Positions 2,016-52,745 of a DNA stretch of 64,000 nucleotides are shown here, in pieces (positions within the stretch are counted from its first letter, which is position 1; each line of letters opens with the position of its first letter). This stretch comes from Candidatus Promineifilum breve (lineage in GTDB: Bacteria; Chloroflexota; Anaerolineae; Promineifilales; Promineifilaceae), in assembly GCF_900066015.1 (NCBI RefSeq), contig NZ_LN890655.1, forward strand, positions 620,001-684,000. Direction: 5' to 3'. Both the position numbers and the translations under genes were made by a program. Under the pieces are notes generated by a model. That model saw only the letters and a list, made by a program, of their open reading frames with translations. It had not been told where the DNA came from and searched no databases.

Positions 2016-2080
2016 CCGGCTGTCCTCAGCCGCGACTTCACAGATGGCTTAACCCCCACACTACATCCTAGCCATTGCGC

Positions 2081-2157
2081 ACCCGCCACCCGCCACCCGC
2101 CACCCGCCACCCGCCACCCGCCACCCGCCACTCGCCACTCGCCACCCGCTACCCGCT
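2081..2157. repeat. Tandem heptamer array, 11 units of ACCCGCC type
   Basis: Seven perfect copies of ACCCGCC are followed by two of ACTCGCC and two of ACCCGCT, all in 7-base register without interruption. The array fills the gap between the 3' end of the ABC-transporter ATPase gene and the 5' side of the membrane-protein gene. Because the period is 7, not a multiple of 3, it is open in some frames by chance but has no coding character. Confidence 0.9.
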
Positions 2158-2162
2158 ACCCC

Positions 2163-2930
2163 CTAATGACTAATAATCTTGCTCAAAAACAACTTCGTCC
2201 GTTCATGCTTGGGATCGTTGAACAGCACGCGCGGCGCTTCCATTTCGACCACGCAGCCCTGATCCATGAACACCACGCGATCGGCCGCCGAGCGAGCGAA
2301 CCCCATCTCGTGCGTCACCACGACCATCGTCATGCCGCCCTTCGCCAGATCGAGCATCACGTCGAGCACTTCCTTGATCATCTCCGGGTCGAGGGCGCTG
2401 GTCGGCTCGTCGAAGAGCATGATCTTGGGGTTCATCGCCAGCGAGCGGGCAATCGCCACGCGCTGCTGCTGGCCGCCGGATAGCTGGCGCGGGTAGGCGT
2501 GGGCCTTCTCCGGGATGCCGACGCGCTCCAGTTGCTCCATCGCCACCCGCTCGGCCTCCTGCTTGTTGCGCTTGCGGATCAGCCGTTGGGCCAGGGTGAT
2601 GTTGTCCAGCACCGACAGGTGGCCGAACAGGTTGAACTGCTGGAAGACCATGCCCACCTCGGCCCGCACGGCGTTGATGTCGGTCTTCTTGCCTTCCAGA
2701 TGGACGCCATCGACGTAGATCGCGCCCTCGGTCGGCACTTCCAGGTGGTTGATACAGCGCAATACGGTGCTCTTGCCGGAGCCGCTCGGCCCGACGACGA
2801 CCACCACTTCGCCGCGTCGCACGTTCAGACTGAAACCGTTTACGGCCTGCACGCTGCCGAAAGTCTTAGACAGATTATCAATGACGATGATATCGTCTCC
2901 CAGGACGTGGCCGACAGGGCTATTTTGCAT
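2163..2930 (-). CDS. Polar amino-acid ABC transporter ATP-binding protein (GlnQ/HisP type)
   Basis: This cytoplasmic ATPase powers the permease encoded just upstream. Walker [10 protein letters not shown] is at residues 47-55 from the chosen start. The signature [15 protein letters not shown], Walker [13 protein letters not shown] and H-loop [10 protein letters not shown] follow in order. Full-length members are about 240-260 residues, matching 255 here. The ATG at 2930 has GGAGG ten bases upstream. An earlier ATG at 2951 gives seven more residues but has no ribosome site. The gene overlaps the permease stop by 11 bases, so the two are translationally coupled. The exact amino-acid substrate cannot be told from sequence. 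Confidence 0.93.
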
Positions 2931-19031: not shown

Positions 19032-19101
19032 AATGTTTTTCCCGCTACGACTGTTCGCACCCCGGTCAACTTTGGCGAGCGAACGCGAGCATTGTTGATT
19101 A

Positions 19102-20027
19102 ACCCAAGTTGCTACCTTGTTTAACAAAAAGGAGTCCATGAACTATCCTAGTGGTTGGTAACACGCCAATGTCCGCAACCAACCAGGAGTAATTCATGGA
19201 CACCGAGATCATAACCATTTACTGTCTGTGTGACGACTTTTTGAAAGCGATGAACCACGTCGAAGACCGCCAACGCCGCCTGATTGACGCCGAAGTGATG
19301 ACCGTAGCCATTGTGGCTGCGCGGTACTTCGGCGGCATCATCGAGCGGGCACGGGTGATGCTGGCCGAGCCACGTTACATGCCCCTGATGGTGAGTCGGA
19401 GCCGGCTGAATCGCCGTCTGCGACGGGTCATGCCGCTCTTGCTGAGCCTCTTTGAGACGTTGGCCGAGGAGTGGAAGGCGCAGAACGAGGCGTCGTGGTA
19501 CGCTCTGGACACCTTTCCGGTGGCCGCGTGTGACCCGTACCGCGTCATCCGCGTTCGTCTCTATGACGGCGAGGCGTATCGCGGCTATCAGGCCAGTAAG
19601 CGCCGGTACTACTATGGCCTCAAGCTCCATCTGATGGTTACCGCCCACGGTCAGCCGGTCGAGTTCTTCCTGACCCCCGCTAGCTGTGGCGATGTCACCG
19701 GCTTGCAGTTGTTCAACTTTGACTTGCCGGAAGGCTCGCATGTCTATGCCGACAAGGCCTACAACGACTATCGCATTGAAGACGAACTGACCCAGGTAGG
19801 CATTCACCTCTTGCCCCTGCGCAAGAAGAACTCCAAGCGTCCCCACCCAGCGTGGTTGACCACCTTGATTAGTGCCAAGCGCAAAGTCGTTGAGACGGCA
19901 GGCAGCCTGATCCAGCGTTGCATGCCCAAGAGCATTCATGCCGTGACCGCCGCTGGTTTTGAGATGAAGGTCGTCCTGTTCGTCCTGGGCCTTAGCTTGC
20001 ATTATGTCCTAGGGTAGCAACTTGGGT
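19102..20027. mobile_element. IS982-family insertion sequence, intact, 926 bp
   Basis: The element has perfect 15-bp terminal inverted repeats, ACCCAAGTTGCTACC at 19102-19116 and its complement at 20013-20027. Both sides are flanked by the same 6 bases, TGATTA (19096-19101 and 20028-20033), read as the target-site duplication. It contains a single full-length transposase gene. Ends beginning with ACC, a size near 1 kb and the transposase type all fit IS982. Perfect ends, target duplication and intact frame point to recent insertion. Confidence 0.95.
19196..20017 (+). CDS. IS982-family transposase
   Basis: A 273-residue DDE transposase. The N-terminus ITIYCLCDDFLKAM is the family hallmark. 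The catalytic acids are Asp105 in WYALDTFPV, Asp186 in VYADKAYNDY and Glu233 in KRKVVETAGSLI. The ribosome site AGGAG lies six bases before the ATG at 19196. Downstream of the Glu the family usually has an F-S-x-L type helix, present here in altered form (SLIQRCMPKSIHA). The frame is uninterrupted, so the enzyme is probably active. Confidence 0.93.
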   Translation: MDTEIITIYCLCDDFLKAMNHVEDRQRRLIDAEVMTVAIVAARYFGGIIERARVMLAEPRYMPLMVSRSRLNRRLRRVMPLLLSLFETLAEEWKAQNEASWYALDTFPVAACDPYRVIRVRLYDGEAYRGYQASKRRYYYGLKLHLMVTAHGQPVEFFLTPASCGDVTGLQLFNFDLPEGSHVYADKAYNDYRIEDELTQVGIHLLPLRKKNSKRPHPAWLTTLISAKRKVVETAGSLIQRCMPKSIHAVTAAGFEMKVVLFVLGLSLHYVLG

Positions 20028-20114
20028 TGATTATATGTCTATCAGACGTTCGACCGCAAGAGGCAGGTTCCCGATCTAACACCCCTCTAACCAGCCGAAT
20101 TCACGCCGCCACGC

Positions 20115-20143
20115 TTGACAAGCGATCATTCGGCCGCTATTCT
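20115..20143 (+). promoter_or_regulatory. Sigma-70-type promoter of glmS leader
   Basis: TTGACA (20115-20120), a 17-base spacer, then TATTCT (20138-20143). The -35 matches the consensus exactly and the -10 at four of six positions. It lies about 65 bases upstream of the predicted ribozyme cleavage site, so the transcript would include the complete ribozyme and the hairpin at 20164-20196 (CGGGTAGCC with GGCTACCCG). Confidence 0.75.
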
Positions 20144-20208
20144 GTGCGGCAACAACCGAATATCGGGTAGCCCCCTCGCTCCGGCGCGGCTACCCGAGGG
20201 GCGAGACA

Positions 20209-20480
20209 GCGCAAGGCCTGGAGTAGTGGGTAGTAGACAGTGGGTAGTGGGTAGTGGGCAGTGGGTAGTTCTATACTGACCACTGTCCACTACCCACTAC
20301 CCACTAACTCCAGGTGACGAGGTGGAGGTTCCTCGCGGCGACGCGAGGCCAAGCCGGGTAGAGGCCAATGGTTTGAATAGACCAGAGCTTCCTTCCGGCG
20401 AAAATCGAACGATCAGCGGATGCCTCCCAGGGTCGATCACACTCTGAGCTTTTGCCCCTTCAACTGAGCGCGGCGACAAA
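20209..20480 (+). ncRNA. glmS self-cleaving ribozyme / glucosamine-6-phosphate riboswitch
   Basis: The leader of glmS matches the glmS ribozyme core in order. GCGC at 20209 follows the expected A, so cleavage is predicted between 20208 and 20209. A 7-bp P1 closes with CCTGGAG (20217-20223) and CTCCAGG (20308-20314). The invariant GACGAGGTGGAGGTT is at 20316-20330, GCGGATGCCTCCC at 20416-20428 (P2 pairs GGAGG with CCTCC), and P4 pairs CAGGGT (20428-20433) with ACTCTG (20441-20446) around the conserved GATCACA. P3 is extended by extra hairpins. Known members bind glucosamine-6-phosphate, cleave themselves and lower glmS mRNA. The 3' limit is approximate. Confidence 0.93.
20224..20307. repeat. 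Heptamer repeat hairpin inside ribozyme P1
   Basis: GGGTAGT-type heptamers on the left half (about six units, some varied) face complementary ACTACCC units on the right half, with TTCTATACTGA as apical loop. Together they form a long imperfect hairpin that extends P1 of the glmS ribozyme by more than 25 base pairs. P1 is the variable helix of the ribozyme, so the insertion should not break the core. Confidence 0.9.
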
Positions 20481-20683
20481 CCGGCACGGGTAACCGACCG
20501 ACAAATCGCCGGGCAGGTGATCAACGAACAGGATCAATCGAAGGGGCGTCCCCGCGCAAACCACAATTGGGAACGCCTGCATGGCCGGTCATGGCCGCCG
20601 GATGAACGCGCCTCGCTTGCGCCGGGCAGCGTTCGCGCCGGAGCGCCGACAACCATGACCGCCACAACCCGTGGAGGTTGACC

Positions 20684-22528
20684 ATGTGTGGTATTGTTGG
20701 TTACATCGGGCCGCGCCAGGCCCCCGAGATCGTCTTGCAAGGCTTGAAGCGGTTGGAGTATCGCGGCTATGATTCGGCCGGGATCGCCGCGTTGGGCGAC
20801 GACGGCGCCATCGCCATCCGCCGCGACGTGGGTAAATTGGCCAATCTGGAGGCGACGCTGGCCGCCGCGCCGCTGGCCGGTCACGTCGCCATCGGCCACA
20901 CGCGCTGGGCCACCCACGGCGCGCCCACCCAACGCAACGCCCATCCCCATCTGAGCATGAACGGCCGCGTCGTCCTCGTCCACAACGGCATCGTCGAGAA
21001 CTTCAAGGCCCTGCGCGATGAATTGACCGCCGAGGGCGTCGAGTTTCGCTCGGAGACGGACACCGAGGTCATCGTCCAGTTGGCCGAGCGCTACATGGCC
21101 GGCGGGCAATCGCTGGAAGAGGCCGCCCGGCACACGCTGGGCCATCTGGAAGGGGCCAACGCCGTCGTCCTGATGAGCGCCGACCAGCCCGACCGCATCG
21201 TCTGCGCCCGCATCGGCAACGCCGGCGGCATCACCCTGGGCCTGGGCGAAGGCGAGATGTTCATCGCCTCCGACATCCCGGCCATCCTGGAATACACGCG
21301 GCAAATGATCTTTCTGGAGAGCCGGCAGATGGCGGTCATTACCGCCGGCGGCTATCGCGTCATGACCCTGGACGGCCGCCCGGTCGCCCCGGAACGCCAC
21401 ACCATCGCCTGGGACCCGGTCAGCGCCGTCAAGGGCGAATACAAGCACTTCATGCAAAAGGAGATCTTCGAGCAGCCGCGGGCGCTCATCGACACCCTGG
21501 GCGGCCGCGTCGATTTCGAGACCGGCTGTGTGACGCTGCCGGAGATGAACCTGACGCCGGAACTGGTGGCCCGCCTCAACAAGCTCATCATCGTCGCCTG
21601 TGGCACCAGCTACTACGCCGGGCTGGTGGGCAAGTTCATGATCGAGACCATCGCCCGCCTGCCGGTCGAGGTCGAATACGCCTCGGAATTTCGCTACTAC
21701 AACCCTATTATTGACGAGCGCACGGCGGTGCTGTCCATCACCCAGAGCGGCGAGACGGCCGACACGCTGGCCGCCGCCGAACAGGCCCGCGGCCAGGGGG
21801 CGACGCTGTGGGCCATCGTCAATGCCATCGGCAGCCAATCGATGCGCCTGTCCGATGGGGCCATCCCCATGCACGCCGGGCCGGAGATCGGCGTCGCCAG
21901 CACCAAGGCCTTCACCAGCTCGCTGGCCGATCTCTATCTGCTGGCCTGTGCGCTGGGGGAGATGCGCGGCCTACTGACACCCCAACGCCGCCGGCAGTTG
22001 GCCGACGACGTGGCCCATTTGCCGGCGCTGGTCGGCCGGGCGCTGGAGCACGATGCCGCCTATCAGGCGTTGGCCGAGCGCTTCCACAAGGCCGAGAATT
22101 TCCTGTTCCTGGGTCGGGGTATCAACTACCCCATCGCGCTGGAAGGGGCGCTCAAGCTGAAGGAGATCAGCTACATCCACGCCGAAGGCTACCCGGCGGG
22201 CGAGATGAAGCACGGCCCCATCGCCCTGATCGATGAGTCAATGCCGGTGCTGGCGATTGTGACCAAGGATGCGCTCTACGACAAGATGATCAGCCAGGTG
22301 CAGCAGGCCAAGGCGCGCGGCGGCGTGGTCATCGCGTTGGCGACGGAGGGGGACGAGGCCATCCGCGCCGAGGCCGATCACGTCATCTACGTGCCGGAGA
22401 CGCCGCCGCTGCTGGCCCCTATTGTCAACGTCGTGCCCCTACAACTGCTCAGCTACCACATCGCCGTGCGCCGCGGCGCGGACGTCGACCAGCCGCGCAA
22501 CCTGGCTAAGAGTGTGACGGTGGAGTAG
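20684..22528 (+). CDS. glmS: Glutamine-fructose-6-phosphate aminotransferase (isomerising)
   Basis: It makes glucosamine-6-phosphate from fructose-6-phosphate and glutamine, the first step to UDP-GlcNAc for peptidoglycan. The start MCGIVGYIG exposes the catalytic Cys after Met removal; GGAGG is six bases before this ATG, so 20684 is preferred to the ATG two codons earlier. The class II glutamine amidotransferase domain (about 1-230) has GHTRWATHG and the NGIVEN motif. Two SIS sugar-binding domains follow (CGTSYYAG; SQSGETADT; STKAFTS), ending in KSVTVE, the usual C-terminus. At 614 residues it is complete. The preceding ribozyme gives product feedback at the mRNA level. Confidence 0.97.
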   Translation: MCGIVGYIGPRQAPEIVLQGLKRLEYRGYDSAGIAALGDDGAIAIRRDVGKLANLEATLAAAPLAGHVAIGHTRWATHGAPTQRNAHPHLSMNGRVVLVHNGIVENFKALRDELTAEGVEFRSETDTEVIVQLAERYMAGGQSLEEAARHTLGHLEGANAVVLMSADQPDRIVCARIGNAGGITLGLGEGEMFIASDIPAILEYTRQMIFLESRQMAVITAGGYRVMTLDGRPVAPERHTIAWDPVSAVKGEYKHFMQKEIFEQPRALIDTLGGRVDFETGCVTLPEMNLTPELVARLNKLIIVACGTSYYAGLVGKFMIETIARLPVEVEYASEFRYYNPIIDERTAVLSITQSGETADTLAAAEQARGQGATLWAIVNAIGSQSMRLSDGAIPMHAGPEIGVASTKAFTSSLADLYLLACALGEMRGLLTPQRRRQLADDVAHLPALVGRALEHDAAYQALAERFHKAENFLFLGRGINYPIALEGALKLKEISYIHAEGYPAGEMKHGPIALIDESMPVLAIVTKDALYDKMISQVQQAKARGGVVIALATEGDEAIRAEADHVIYVPETPPLLAPIVNVVPLQLLSYHIAVRRGADVDQPRNLAKSVTVE

Positions 22529-22536
22529 AGAAGAAA

Positions 22537-22609
22537 GAGAATCCACAGATTACACAGATTTCACAGATTTTTCTCTTATCTGTGAAATCTGTGTAATCTG
22601 TGGATTCTC
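22537..22609. repeat. Perfect 32-bp hairpin of the CACAGATT family
   Basis: The arms at 22537-22568 and 22578-22609 are exact reverse complements (32 of 32) with a 9-base loop TTTTTCTCT/T. Each arm is itself built from CACAGATT spaced 9-10 bases apart. It lies between the stops of glmS and the convergent PHP phosphatase gene. It has no U-tract after the stem, so it may act as a folded 3' barrier but is not a standard intrinsic terminator. Confidence 0.92.
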
Positions 22610-42845: not shown

Positions 42846-42951
42846 GGGGACACAGAGACCACAGAGAAGTCACAGAGATTCACAGAGAAAGCGCCTTCTT
42901 CCCTCCGTGTTCTCTGTGACTCCTCGGTGTTCTCTGTGTCCTCTTTTGACA
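42846..42951. repeat. Imperfect hairpin of the CACAGAGA family
   Basis: Left half GGACACAGAGACCACAGAG and AGTCACAGAGATTCACAGAG faces a right half with TTCTCTGTGACTCC and TTCTCTGTGTCC. The halves pair over more than 30 positions with some mismatches. The motif CACAGAGA recurs at 9-11 base spacing. It lies in the divergent gap between two methyltransferase genes. Confidence 0.8.
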
Positions 42952-52643: not shown

Positions 52644-52745
52644 GAATTCAACACGGATTTACACGGATTTCACGGATAGGGCACGGATAGGGCATCGATT
52701 CAATCCGTATCTTCCGTGAAATCCGTGCCAATCCGGGTTGAATTC
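52644..52745. repeat. Hairpin of the CACGGATT family, convergent gap
   Basis: GAATTCAACACGGATT plus TACACGGATTTCACGGA on the left pairs with the right half TCCGTGAAATCCGTG, then CCAATCCGGGTTGAATTC, with three mismatches over about 32 positions. A central segment repeats GGGCACGGATA. It fills the gap between the M23 gene and the DUF1461 gene, both ending here. Confidence 0.88.

What the first reader, a model, noticed from the sequence alone, without database searches (positions are those of the whole stretch)
20209..20480. glmS ribozyme in a probable Chloroflexota genome, with a heptamer repeat array inside its P1 helix
Seen: conserved ribozyme segments (cleavage-site GCGC, GACGAGGTGGAGGTT, GCGGATGCCTCCC, GATCACA in P4) in correct order upstream of a full glmS, plus a perfect 7-bp P1 base. 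The 84 bases inside P1 are a heptamer repeat folded on itself. Known: glmS ribozymes bind glucosamine-6-phosphate and occur mostly in Gram-positive bacteria. The repeat sits in the one helix where length is free, as if selection purged insertions elsewhere. The long hairpin could also change folding speed.
Basis: partly seen in the sequence, partly recalled or inferred. Interest (0 to 1): 0.78.

Follow-up and report, generated by a model that had tools for sequence, protein, structure and literature searches.

The report
glmS ribozyme with repeat-filled P1 hairpin
This is a genuine self-cutting RNA switch in front of the glmS gene of a Chloroflexota bacterium; one of its hairpins has been filled by a seven-letter repeat that is scattered through this genome, and the same kind of filling, with different repeats, has happened many times in related bacteria.

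Summary
Window 20209-20522 is a glmS ribozyme. The Rfam model sees it only weakly (25.7 bits; cut-off 37), but a model built from 18 same-family leaders, without the window and without P1, scores 111.5 bits here and hits nowhere else in the genome. It precedes a clear glmS gene and a TTGACA-N17-TATTCT promoter. P1 closes with seven perfect pairs around an 84-base, self-complementary heptamer array. That array is a copy of a repeat private to this genome (240 matches; none in three congeners, three in a fourth). The new part is scope. Among 136 Anaerolineae glmS ribozymes with clear boundaries, strict heptamer arrays occur in 17 P1 helices and in none of the P2-side hairpins; a looser test finds them in 30 P1 helices across seven families. 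Unit sequences differ, and in all four genomes tested the P1 unit matches that genome's own dispersed family. I read the array as a tolerated passenger, like the heptamer repeats in P6b of the cyanobacterial tRNA-Leu intron. An effect on folding or RNase III cleavage is possible but unsupported.

The parts
20115..20143 (+). likely sigma-70-type promoter TTGACA-N17-TATTCT
   Evidence: only promoter-like site in 19900-20720, 10 of 12 matches; 0.2 expected
20164..20196 (+). hairpin 5' of the cleavage site (CGGGTAGCC/GGCTACCCG), with changed but pairing arms in congeners L082 and L019
   Evidence: sequence
20197..20205 (+). 5' strand of a candidate extra helix pairing with 20451-20459
20208..20212 (+). 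cleavage site A|GCGC (between 20208 and 20209)
   Evidence: conserved AGCGC in relatives
20217..20223 (+). P1 5' strand CCUGGAG
20224..20307 (+). heptamer (TAGTGGG) array folded on itself inside P1
   Evidence: same family dispersed in the genome
20308..20314 (+). P1 3' strand CUCCAGG
20316..20465 (+). ribozyme core (GACGAGGUGGAGGUU ... CAGCGGAUGCCUCC, P2/P2-side hairpins/P3, linker)
   Evidence: 111.5 bits, E 1.4e-32 with model R1
20331..20399 (+). two P2-side hairpins; the second (about 20354-20399) is expanded against L019
20435..20440 (+). P3.1 pseudoknot, 5' strand GAUCAC
   Evidence: sequence; partner changes with it in L011, L014, L017
20451..20459 (+). 3' strand of the candidate extra helix, in the P3-P4 linker
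20468..20516 (+). P4 and P4.1
   Evidence: alignment to RF00234; pairing probabilities of 0.95-1.0 for the inner P4 pairs
20517..20522 (+). P3.1 pseudoknot, 3' strand GUGAUC
   Evidence: sequence
20684..22528 (+). glmS, glutamine--fructose-6-phosphate aminotransferase
   Evidence: TIGR01135 790.6 bits (cut-off 418)

Best explanation
A working glmS ribozyme of the usual kind: when glucosamine-6-phosphate is plentiful it binds the core, the leader cuts itself between 20208 and 20209, and glmS expression falls (mechanism inferred from family membership). The upper part of P1 has been taken over by a copy of a self-complementary heptamer repeat family that is private to this genome. The array is tolerated because P1 lies outside the catalytic core and because both arms arrive together as a hairpin, so the P1 base and the core still fold. 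Such take-overs have happened repeatedly in Anaerolineae with whatever heptamer family each genome carries. Shown: identity of the ribozyme by sequence and structure, presence and genomic source of the array, recurrence, absence of arrays from the rest of the ribozyme. Inferred: cleavage, ligand response, and neutrality of the array.
For: Ribozyme: core model built without the window gives 111.5 bits and one hit in the genome; 16 of 26 model pairs show compensatory change; several model members pass the RF00234 cut-off themselves; glmS downstream and promoter upstream. Array source: GTAGTGG trimer pattern, 240 matches in the own genome, 0 in G033, G035, G038, 3 in G039, and none for the reversed control in the own genome. 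Diagonal pattern for four units: GTAGTGG in G000 240, CGGTAAT in G028 197, GCTAATG in G051 271, GTTGGAA in G231 589, each at most 23 in the other genomes tested, and each is the unit in that genome's P1. Recurrence: 30 of 58 P1 helices of 40 nt or more have lag-7 periodicity at p of 0.01 or less, about 0.6 expected; best lag is 7 in 34 of 58. At least seven changes of state on a GlmS tree within one family. Tolerance: outside P1 the predicted structure is the same with and without the array; P1 deletions of several bases keep Tte ribozyme activity (PMC7125110).
Against: No cleavage data. RF00234 score is under its cut-off. The array lowers the predicted pairing probability of the P1 base from about 1.0 to 0.69 through register slippage, so it may not be wholly neutral. 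P1 holds heptamers at a higher density than the leader spacer (16% against 6.3% of bases), which simple tolerance need not predict.
Confidence: 0.85

Rival explanations
1. The P1 array is adaptive: its length or slippage tunes co-transcriptional folding of the ribozyme, or makes glmS expression variable between cells, like a contingency locus.
For: Recurrent and enriched in P1 over the spacer; tandem repeats mutate fast (general knowledge); predicted P1 base stability depends on the array.
Against: P1 arrays are no more self-complementary than arrays outside the ribozyme (Mann-Whitney p 0.098), so pairing looks like a property of the repeat, not of selection in P1. Four of six congeners with a readable P1 have none.
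Confidence: 0.1
2. The 26-bp perfect helix is an RNase III site that gives a second, ligand-independent way to destabilise glmS mRNA.
For: 26 uninterrupted pairs exceed the usual RNase III need (general knowledge); the genome has RNase III, 243 bits.
Against: Many P1 arrays in relatives fold less perfectly; RNase III would cut any such hairpin, so this may be a side effect rather than a function.
Confidence: 0.07
3. The ribozyme is a decaying relic, invaded because it no longer matters.
For: Below the RF00234 cut-off; a second hairpin is also expanded.
Against: All invariant core segments, P1 base, P3.1 and P4 are intact and the lineage model scores about as high as in congeners with normal P1 (111.5 against 105.6-119.6 bits). 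Heptamers never enter the core in 136 relatives.
Confidence: 0.03
4. P1 is an actual insertion hotspot for a mobile hairpin element rather than merely a tolerant site.
For: Higher density in P1 than in the spacer; many dispersed hairpins of one family per genome.
Against: Element borders are not constant and no target duplication was seen by eye; arrays of different lengths suggest growth in place; no transposase is linked.
Confidence: 0.12

Closest known systems
glmS ribozyme, Rfam RF00234
   Same: Gene context, cleavage-site GCGC, core segments, P1-P4, P3.1 pseudoknot.
   Different: Two extra P2-side hairpins as usual in this class, a long repeat-filled P1, a candidate extra helix 5' of the cleavage site; scores below the Rfam cut-off.
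Heptanucleotide repeats in P6b of the cyanobacterial tRNA-Leu(UAA) group I intron (TDNGATT and NNTGAGT classes; PMC4476775)
   Same: Seven-base repeats pairing with each other in a peripheral stem of a self-splicing RNA; repeat class replaced repeatedly between lineages.
   Different: Another ribozyme, another phylum, many more unit sequences, and the unit matches the genome's own dispersed family.
STRR / heptanucleotide simple repeats of bacteria (cyanobacterial STRR from memory; Beggiatoaceae TAACTGA repeats, PMC4679880)
   Same: Seven-base units, dispersed, intergenic, sporadic in distribution.
   Different: TAACTGA repeats are direct arrays, usually near start codons; here many arrays are fold-back pairs and one sits in a ribozyme.

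Membership tests
glmS ribozyme (RF00234) | Located in the leader of glmS | tested here: met
   glmS ORF 20684-22528, TIGR01135 790.6 bits
glmS ribozyme (RF00234) | Conserved catalytic and ligand-binding core segments in order | tested here: met
   Core model R1 match without broken pairs; all invariant segments of alignment A1 present
glmS ribozyme (RF00234) | Covarying P2/P3 core structure in the lineage | tested here: met
   16 of 26 pairs with both-side changes among 18 relatives
glmS ribozyme (RF00234) | P3.1 pseudoknot | tested here: met
   GATCAC 20435-20440 / GTGATC 20517-20522 by inspection; partners change together in L011, L014, L017
glmS ribozyme (RF00234) | Score over the Rfam gathering cut-off (a curators' threshold, not a biological feature) | tested here: inconclusive
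   25.7 bits against 37; but relatives used in R1 pass it, so membership is transitive
glmS ribozyme (RF00234) | Glucosamine-6-phosphate-dependent self-cleavage | not testable with these tools
   needs an in vitro assay
Dispersed heptanucleotide repeats | Seven-base period | tested here: met
Dispersed heptanucleotide repeats | Many copies at unlinked places of the same genome | tested here: met
   240 matches, reversed control 0; about 50 places
Heptamer array in a ribozyme stem, as in tRNA-Leu intron P6b | Array arms pair with each other inside a peripheral helix | tested here: met
   26-bp helix inside P1 (predicted)

The most novel reading that the evidence does not exclude
Heptamer arrays in P1 of Anaerolineae glmS ribozymes are not just tolerated: array length and pairing register act as a fast-mutating dial on ribozyme folding or on RNase III decay, setting glmS expression, and each lineage has recruited its own repeat family for this.
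Probability: 0.1. Interest if true: 0.88.

Novelty: new variant of a known kind. Interest (0 to 1): 0.6.

Why it matters
It gives a second, independent ribozyme, after the cyanobacterial tRNA-Leu intron, in which heptamer repeats repeatedly colonise one peripheral stem while sparing the core. That is a natural insertion-tolerance map of the glmS ribozyme, and it makes the open question 'why seven, and how do these arrays spread and turn over' testable by comparing congeners. It also shows that the Rfam model misses most Chloroflexota glmS ribozymes: over the cut-off in 16 of 52 family genomes, against 45 with a lineage model.

Tried and rejected
miRNA families at the top of the lax Rfam scan are chance matches to the repeat hairpin, far below their cut-offs. 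Truncating the search to 20300-20535 lowered the RF00234 score (12 bits), so the P1 base contributes to the Rfam score. Stronger selection for pairing in P1 arrays than in other arrays: tested and not found. Literature: no held paper joins glmS ribozyme with Anaerolineae or Chloroflexota, and the two holding 'Chloroflexi' show no glmS ribozyme in that phylum in the passages read. The two McCown papers on glmS ribozyme distribution are not held, so novelty of the distribution is not established. Relatedness: counts of genomes are not independent events; the tree count (seven changes in one family) is the safer figure, and it covers 40 rows with a quick tree, some of them partial.

Full report
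What was checked. The coordinates hold: GCGC at 20209, P1 base 20217-20223 with 20308-20314, 84 bases between. The 7-base period is found independently in both arms, and the P1 segment's lag-7 self-match is 7.7 standard deviations above dinucleotide-preserving shuffles. The insert folds into a 26-bp uninterrupted helix plus a 3-bp cap.

Is it a glmS ribozyme? At the Rfam gathering threshold nothing is called in the window or the genome. With lax settings RF00234 covers 20197-20524 at 25.7 bits, E 0.0005. The same model finds 37 of 52 same-family genomes at E up to 1, but only 16 over its cut-off, so Rfam under-calls this lineage. I built a core model (R1) from 18 leaders of the family, starting after P1 and leaving out the window. 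It hits the window once, 20316-20465, at 111.5 bits, E 1.4e-32, and nowhere else in the genome. Sixteen of its 26 pairs show compensatory change. It finds 45 of 52 family genomes, 47 of 56 of the order and 227 of 396 sampled from the class. By inspection, P3.1 is GATCAC 20435-20440 with GTGATC 20517-20522, and the pair covaries in L011, L014 and L017. glmS follows; a promoter lies at 20115-20143. The taxonomy is Anaerolineae/Chloroflexota: the nearest named GlmS is a Chloroflexi MAG (75%), the next a MAG titled Anaerolineae whose contig length equals that of contig C20 of family member G026, and all 12 R1 hits among 80 named loci are in records labelled as Chloroflexota or subgroups of it.

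Where the array comes from. The own genome holds about 50 places with GTAGTGG trimers, many of them fold-back pairs between genes. Congeners G033, G035 and G038 have none and G039 has three. For four genomes whose P1 holds an array I searched the P1 unit across twelve genomes: GTAGTGG (240 matches in G000), CGGTAAT (197 in G028), GCTAATG (271 in G051), GTTGGAA (589 in G231). In every case the home genome dominates; the largest other count is 23 (G025, CGGTAAT). So each P1 carries its own genome's repeat.

How general. I extracted P1 from 142 ribozymes, 136 with well-scored boundaries. P1 is usually 18-35 nt, but 58 are 40 nt or longer. Of these 58, 30 have lag-7 periodicity at p of 0.01 or less, about 0.6 expected, and 7 is the best of lags 4-12 in 34. 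They fall in seven families (codes f1, f18, f26, f39, f40, f42, f44). In the genus of the window, one species has TAGTGGG (window), one has TCAGTTA (G039) and four have no array. A GlmS tree of 40 rows within the family needs at least seven changes of state. With a strict local criterion, heptamers cover 16% of P1 bases, 0% of the P2-side hairpins (8.4 kb in all), 0.1% of the 3' core, 6.3% of the downstream spacer and 1.2% of upstream sequence; no other period from 4 to 12 comes close in P1. P1 against P2-side hairpins is 17 of 136 against 0 of 136, Fisher p 9e-6. The genomes were the best-scoring hits of one class sample, and related genomes are not independent, so these are descriptive counts.

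Length is not free in P1 alone. The window's second P2-side hairpin is longer than that of L019; L025, L028 and the G027 copy have large inserts there. G027's insert is a palindrome like the one that fills P1 of G018. What is confined to P1 is the heptamer kind of insert.

Mechanism. The ribozyme itself should work as its family does: binding of glucosamine-6-phosphate, cleavage at 20208/20209, lower glmS expression (inferred). P1 is peripheral enough that deletions of several bases there keep activity in the Tte core (PMC7125110). Secondary-structure prediction gives the same structure outside P1 with or without the array, with the P1 base at 0.69 instead of about 1.0 pairing probability (pseudoknots are not modelled). 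P1 arrays are not more self-complementary than arrays outside the ribozyme (p 0.098), so the fold-back is a trait of the repeats. The simplest reading is a tolerated passenger. The long perfect helix could be an RNase III substrate, and the genome has RNase III; this is a rival or a side effect.

Relation to known work. The closest parallel is P6b of the tRNA-Leu(UAA) group I intron of Nostoc and Calothrix, built from TDNGATT or NNTGAGT repeats that have replaced each other repeatedly (PMC4476775). [quoted passage not shown] I found no held paper on heptamers in glmS ribozymes or on glmS ribozymes in this class, but the main distribution papers are not held.

A possible extra helix. In the class, the strand just 5' of the cleavage site is complementary to the linker between P3 and P4 (window 20197-20205 with 20451-20459). 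Matched strands pair better than strands swapped between loci (z 7.1, 0 of 200 permutations; z 2.9, 1 of 200, when swapped only within families), while neighbouring control strands do not (z -2.3 to 1.5). RF00234 leaves this 5' stretch unpaired. This deserves its own study.

Noticed in passing
window 20197-20205 with 20451-20459; same in relatives: Candidate extra helix between the strand just 5' of the cleavage site and the P3-P4 linker; covaries across 136 loci (z 7.1; controls -2.3 to 1.5), not in the Rfam structure.
   Followed up: partly
window 20164-20196: Genus-level hairpin directly 5' of that helix, with arms that change but still pair (L082 GGACAGCC/GGCTGTCC, L019 GGGCGGCC/GGCCGCCC).
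   Followed up: no
window 20453-20462 and 20544-20552; also L005, L011, L013, L014, L029: The linker GCCCCTTC is also complementary to a recurring GAAGGGGC(GTCCCC) in the spacer before glmS, so the linker has two possible partners.
   Followed up: no
window 19101-20028: IS982-family element (transposase 19196-20017, inverted ends AACCCAAGTTGCTAC / GTAGCAACTTGGGTT) between rseP and the glmS promoter; the promoter is left intact.
   Followed up: partly
window 22536-22609: Nonamer arrays (CACAGATTT and its complement) forming a long hairpin just after the glmS stop; similar CACAGAG and ACACGGATTT arrays at 42851-42944 and 52651-52694.
   Followed up: no
window 2076-2167: About twelve copies of CACCCGC, a second heptamer family, not folded back on itself.
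   Followed up: no
G018 P1 (L022), G027 P2-side hairpin (L097), G105 P1 (L187), G252 P1 (L182): Other dispersed palindromes (TCATTCCTGCGAAGGCAGGAATCC-like, or TCATTGCGAGC/TCATTCCGAGC-like) inside the same ribozyme's hairpins.
   Followed up: no
class Anaerolineae, family codes f29 and f54: Many of these genomes have two R1 matches; what the second one controls was not examined.
   Followed up: no
G161 and G138 P1 (L170, L158), L206: P1 arrays with period 8 (TTAGTAGA-type, TAGTTGGG-type) instead of 7.
   Followed up: no
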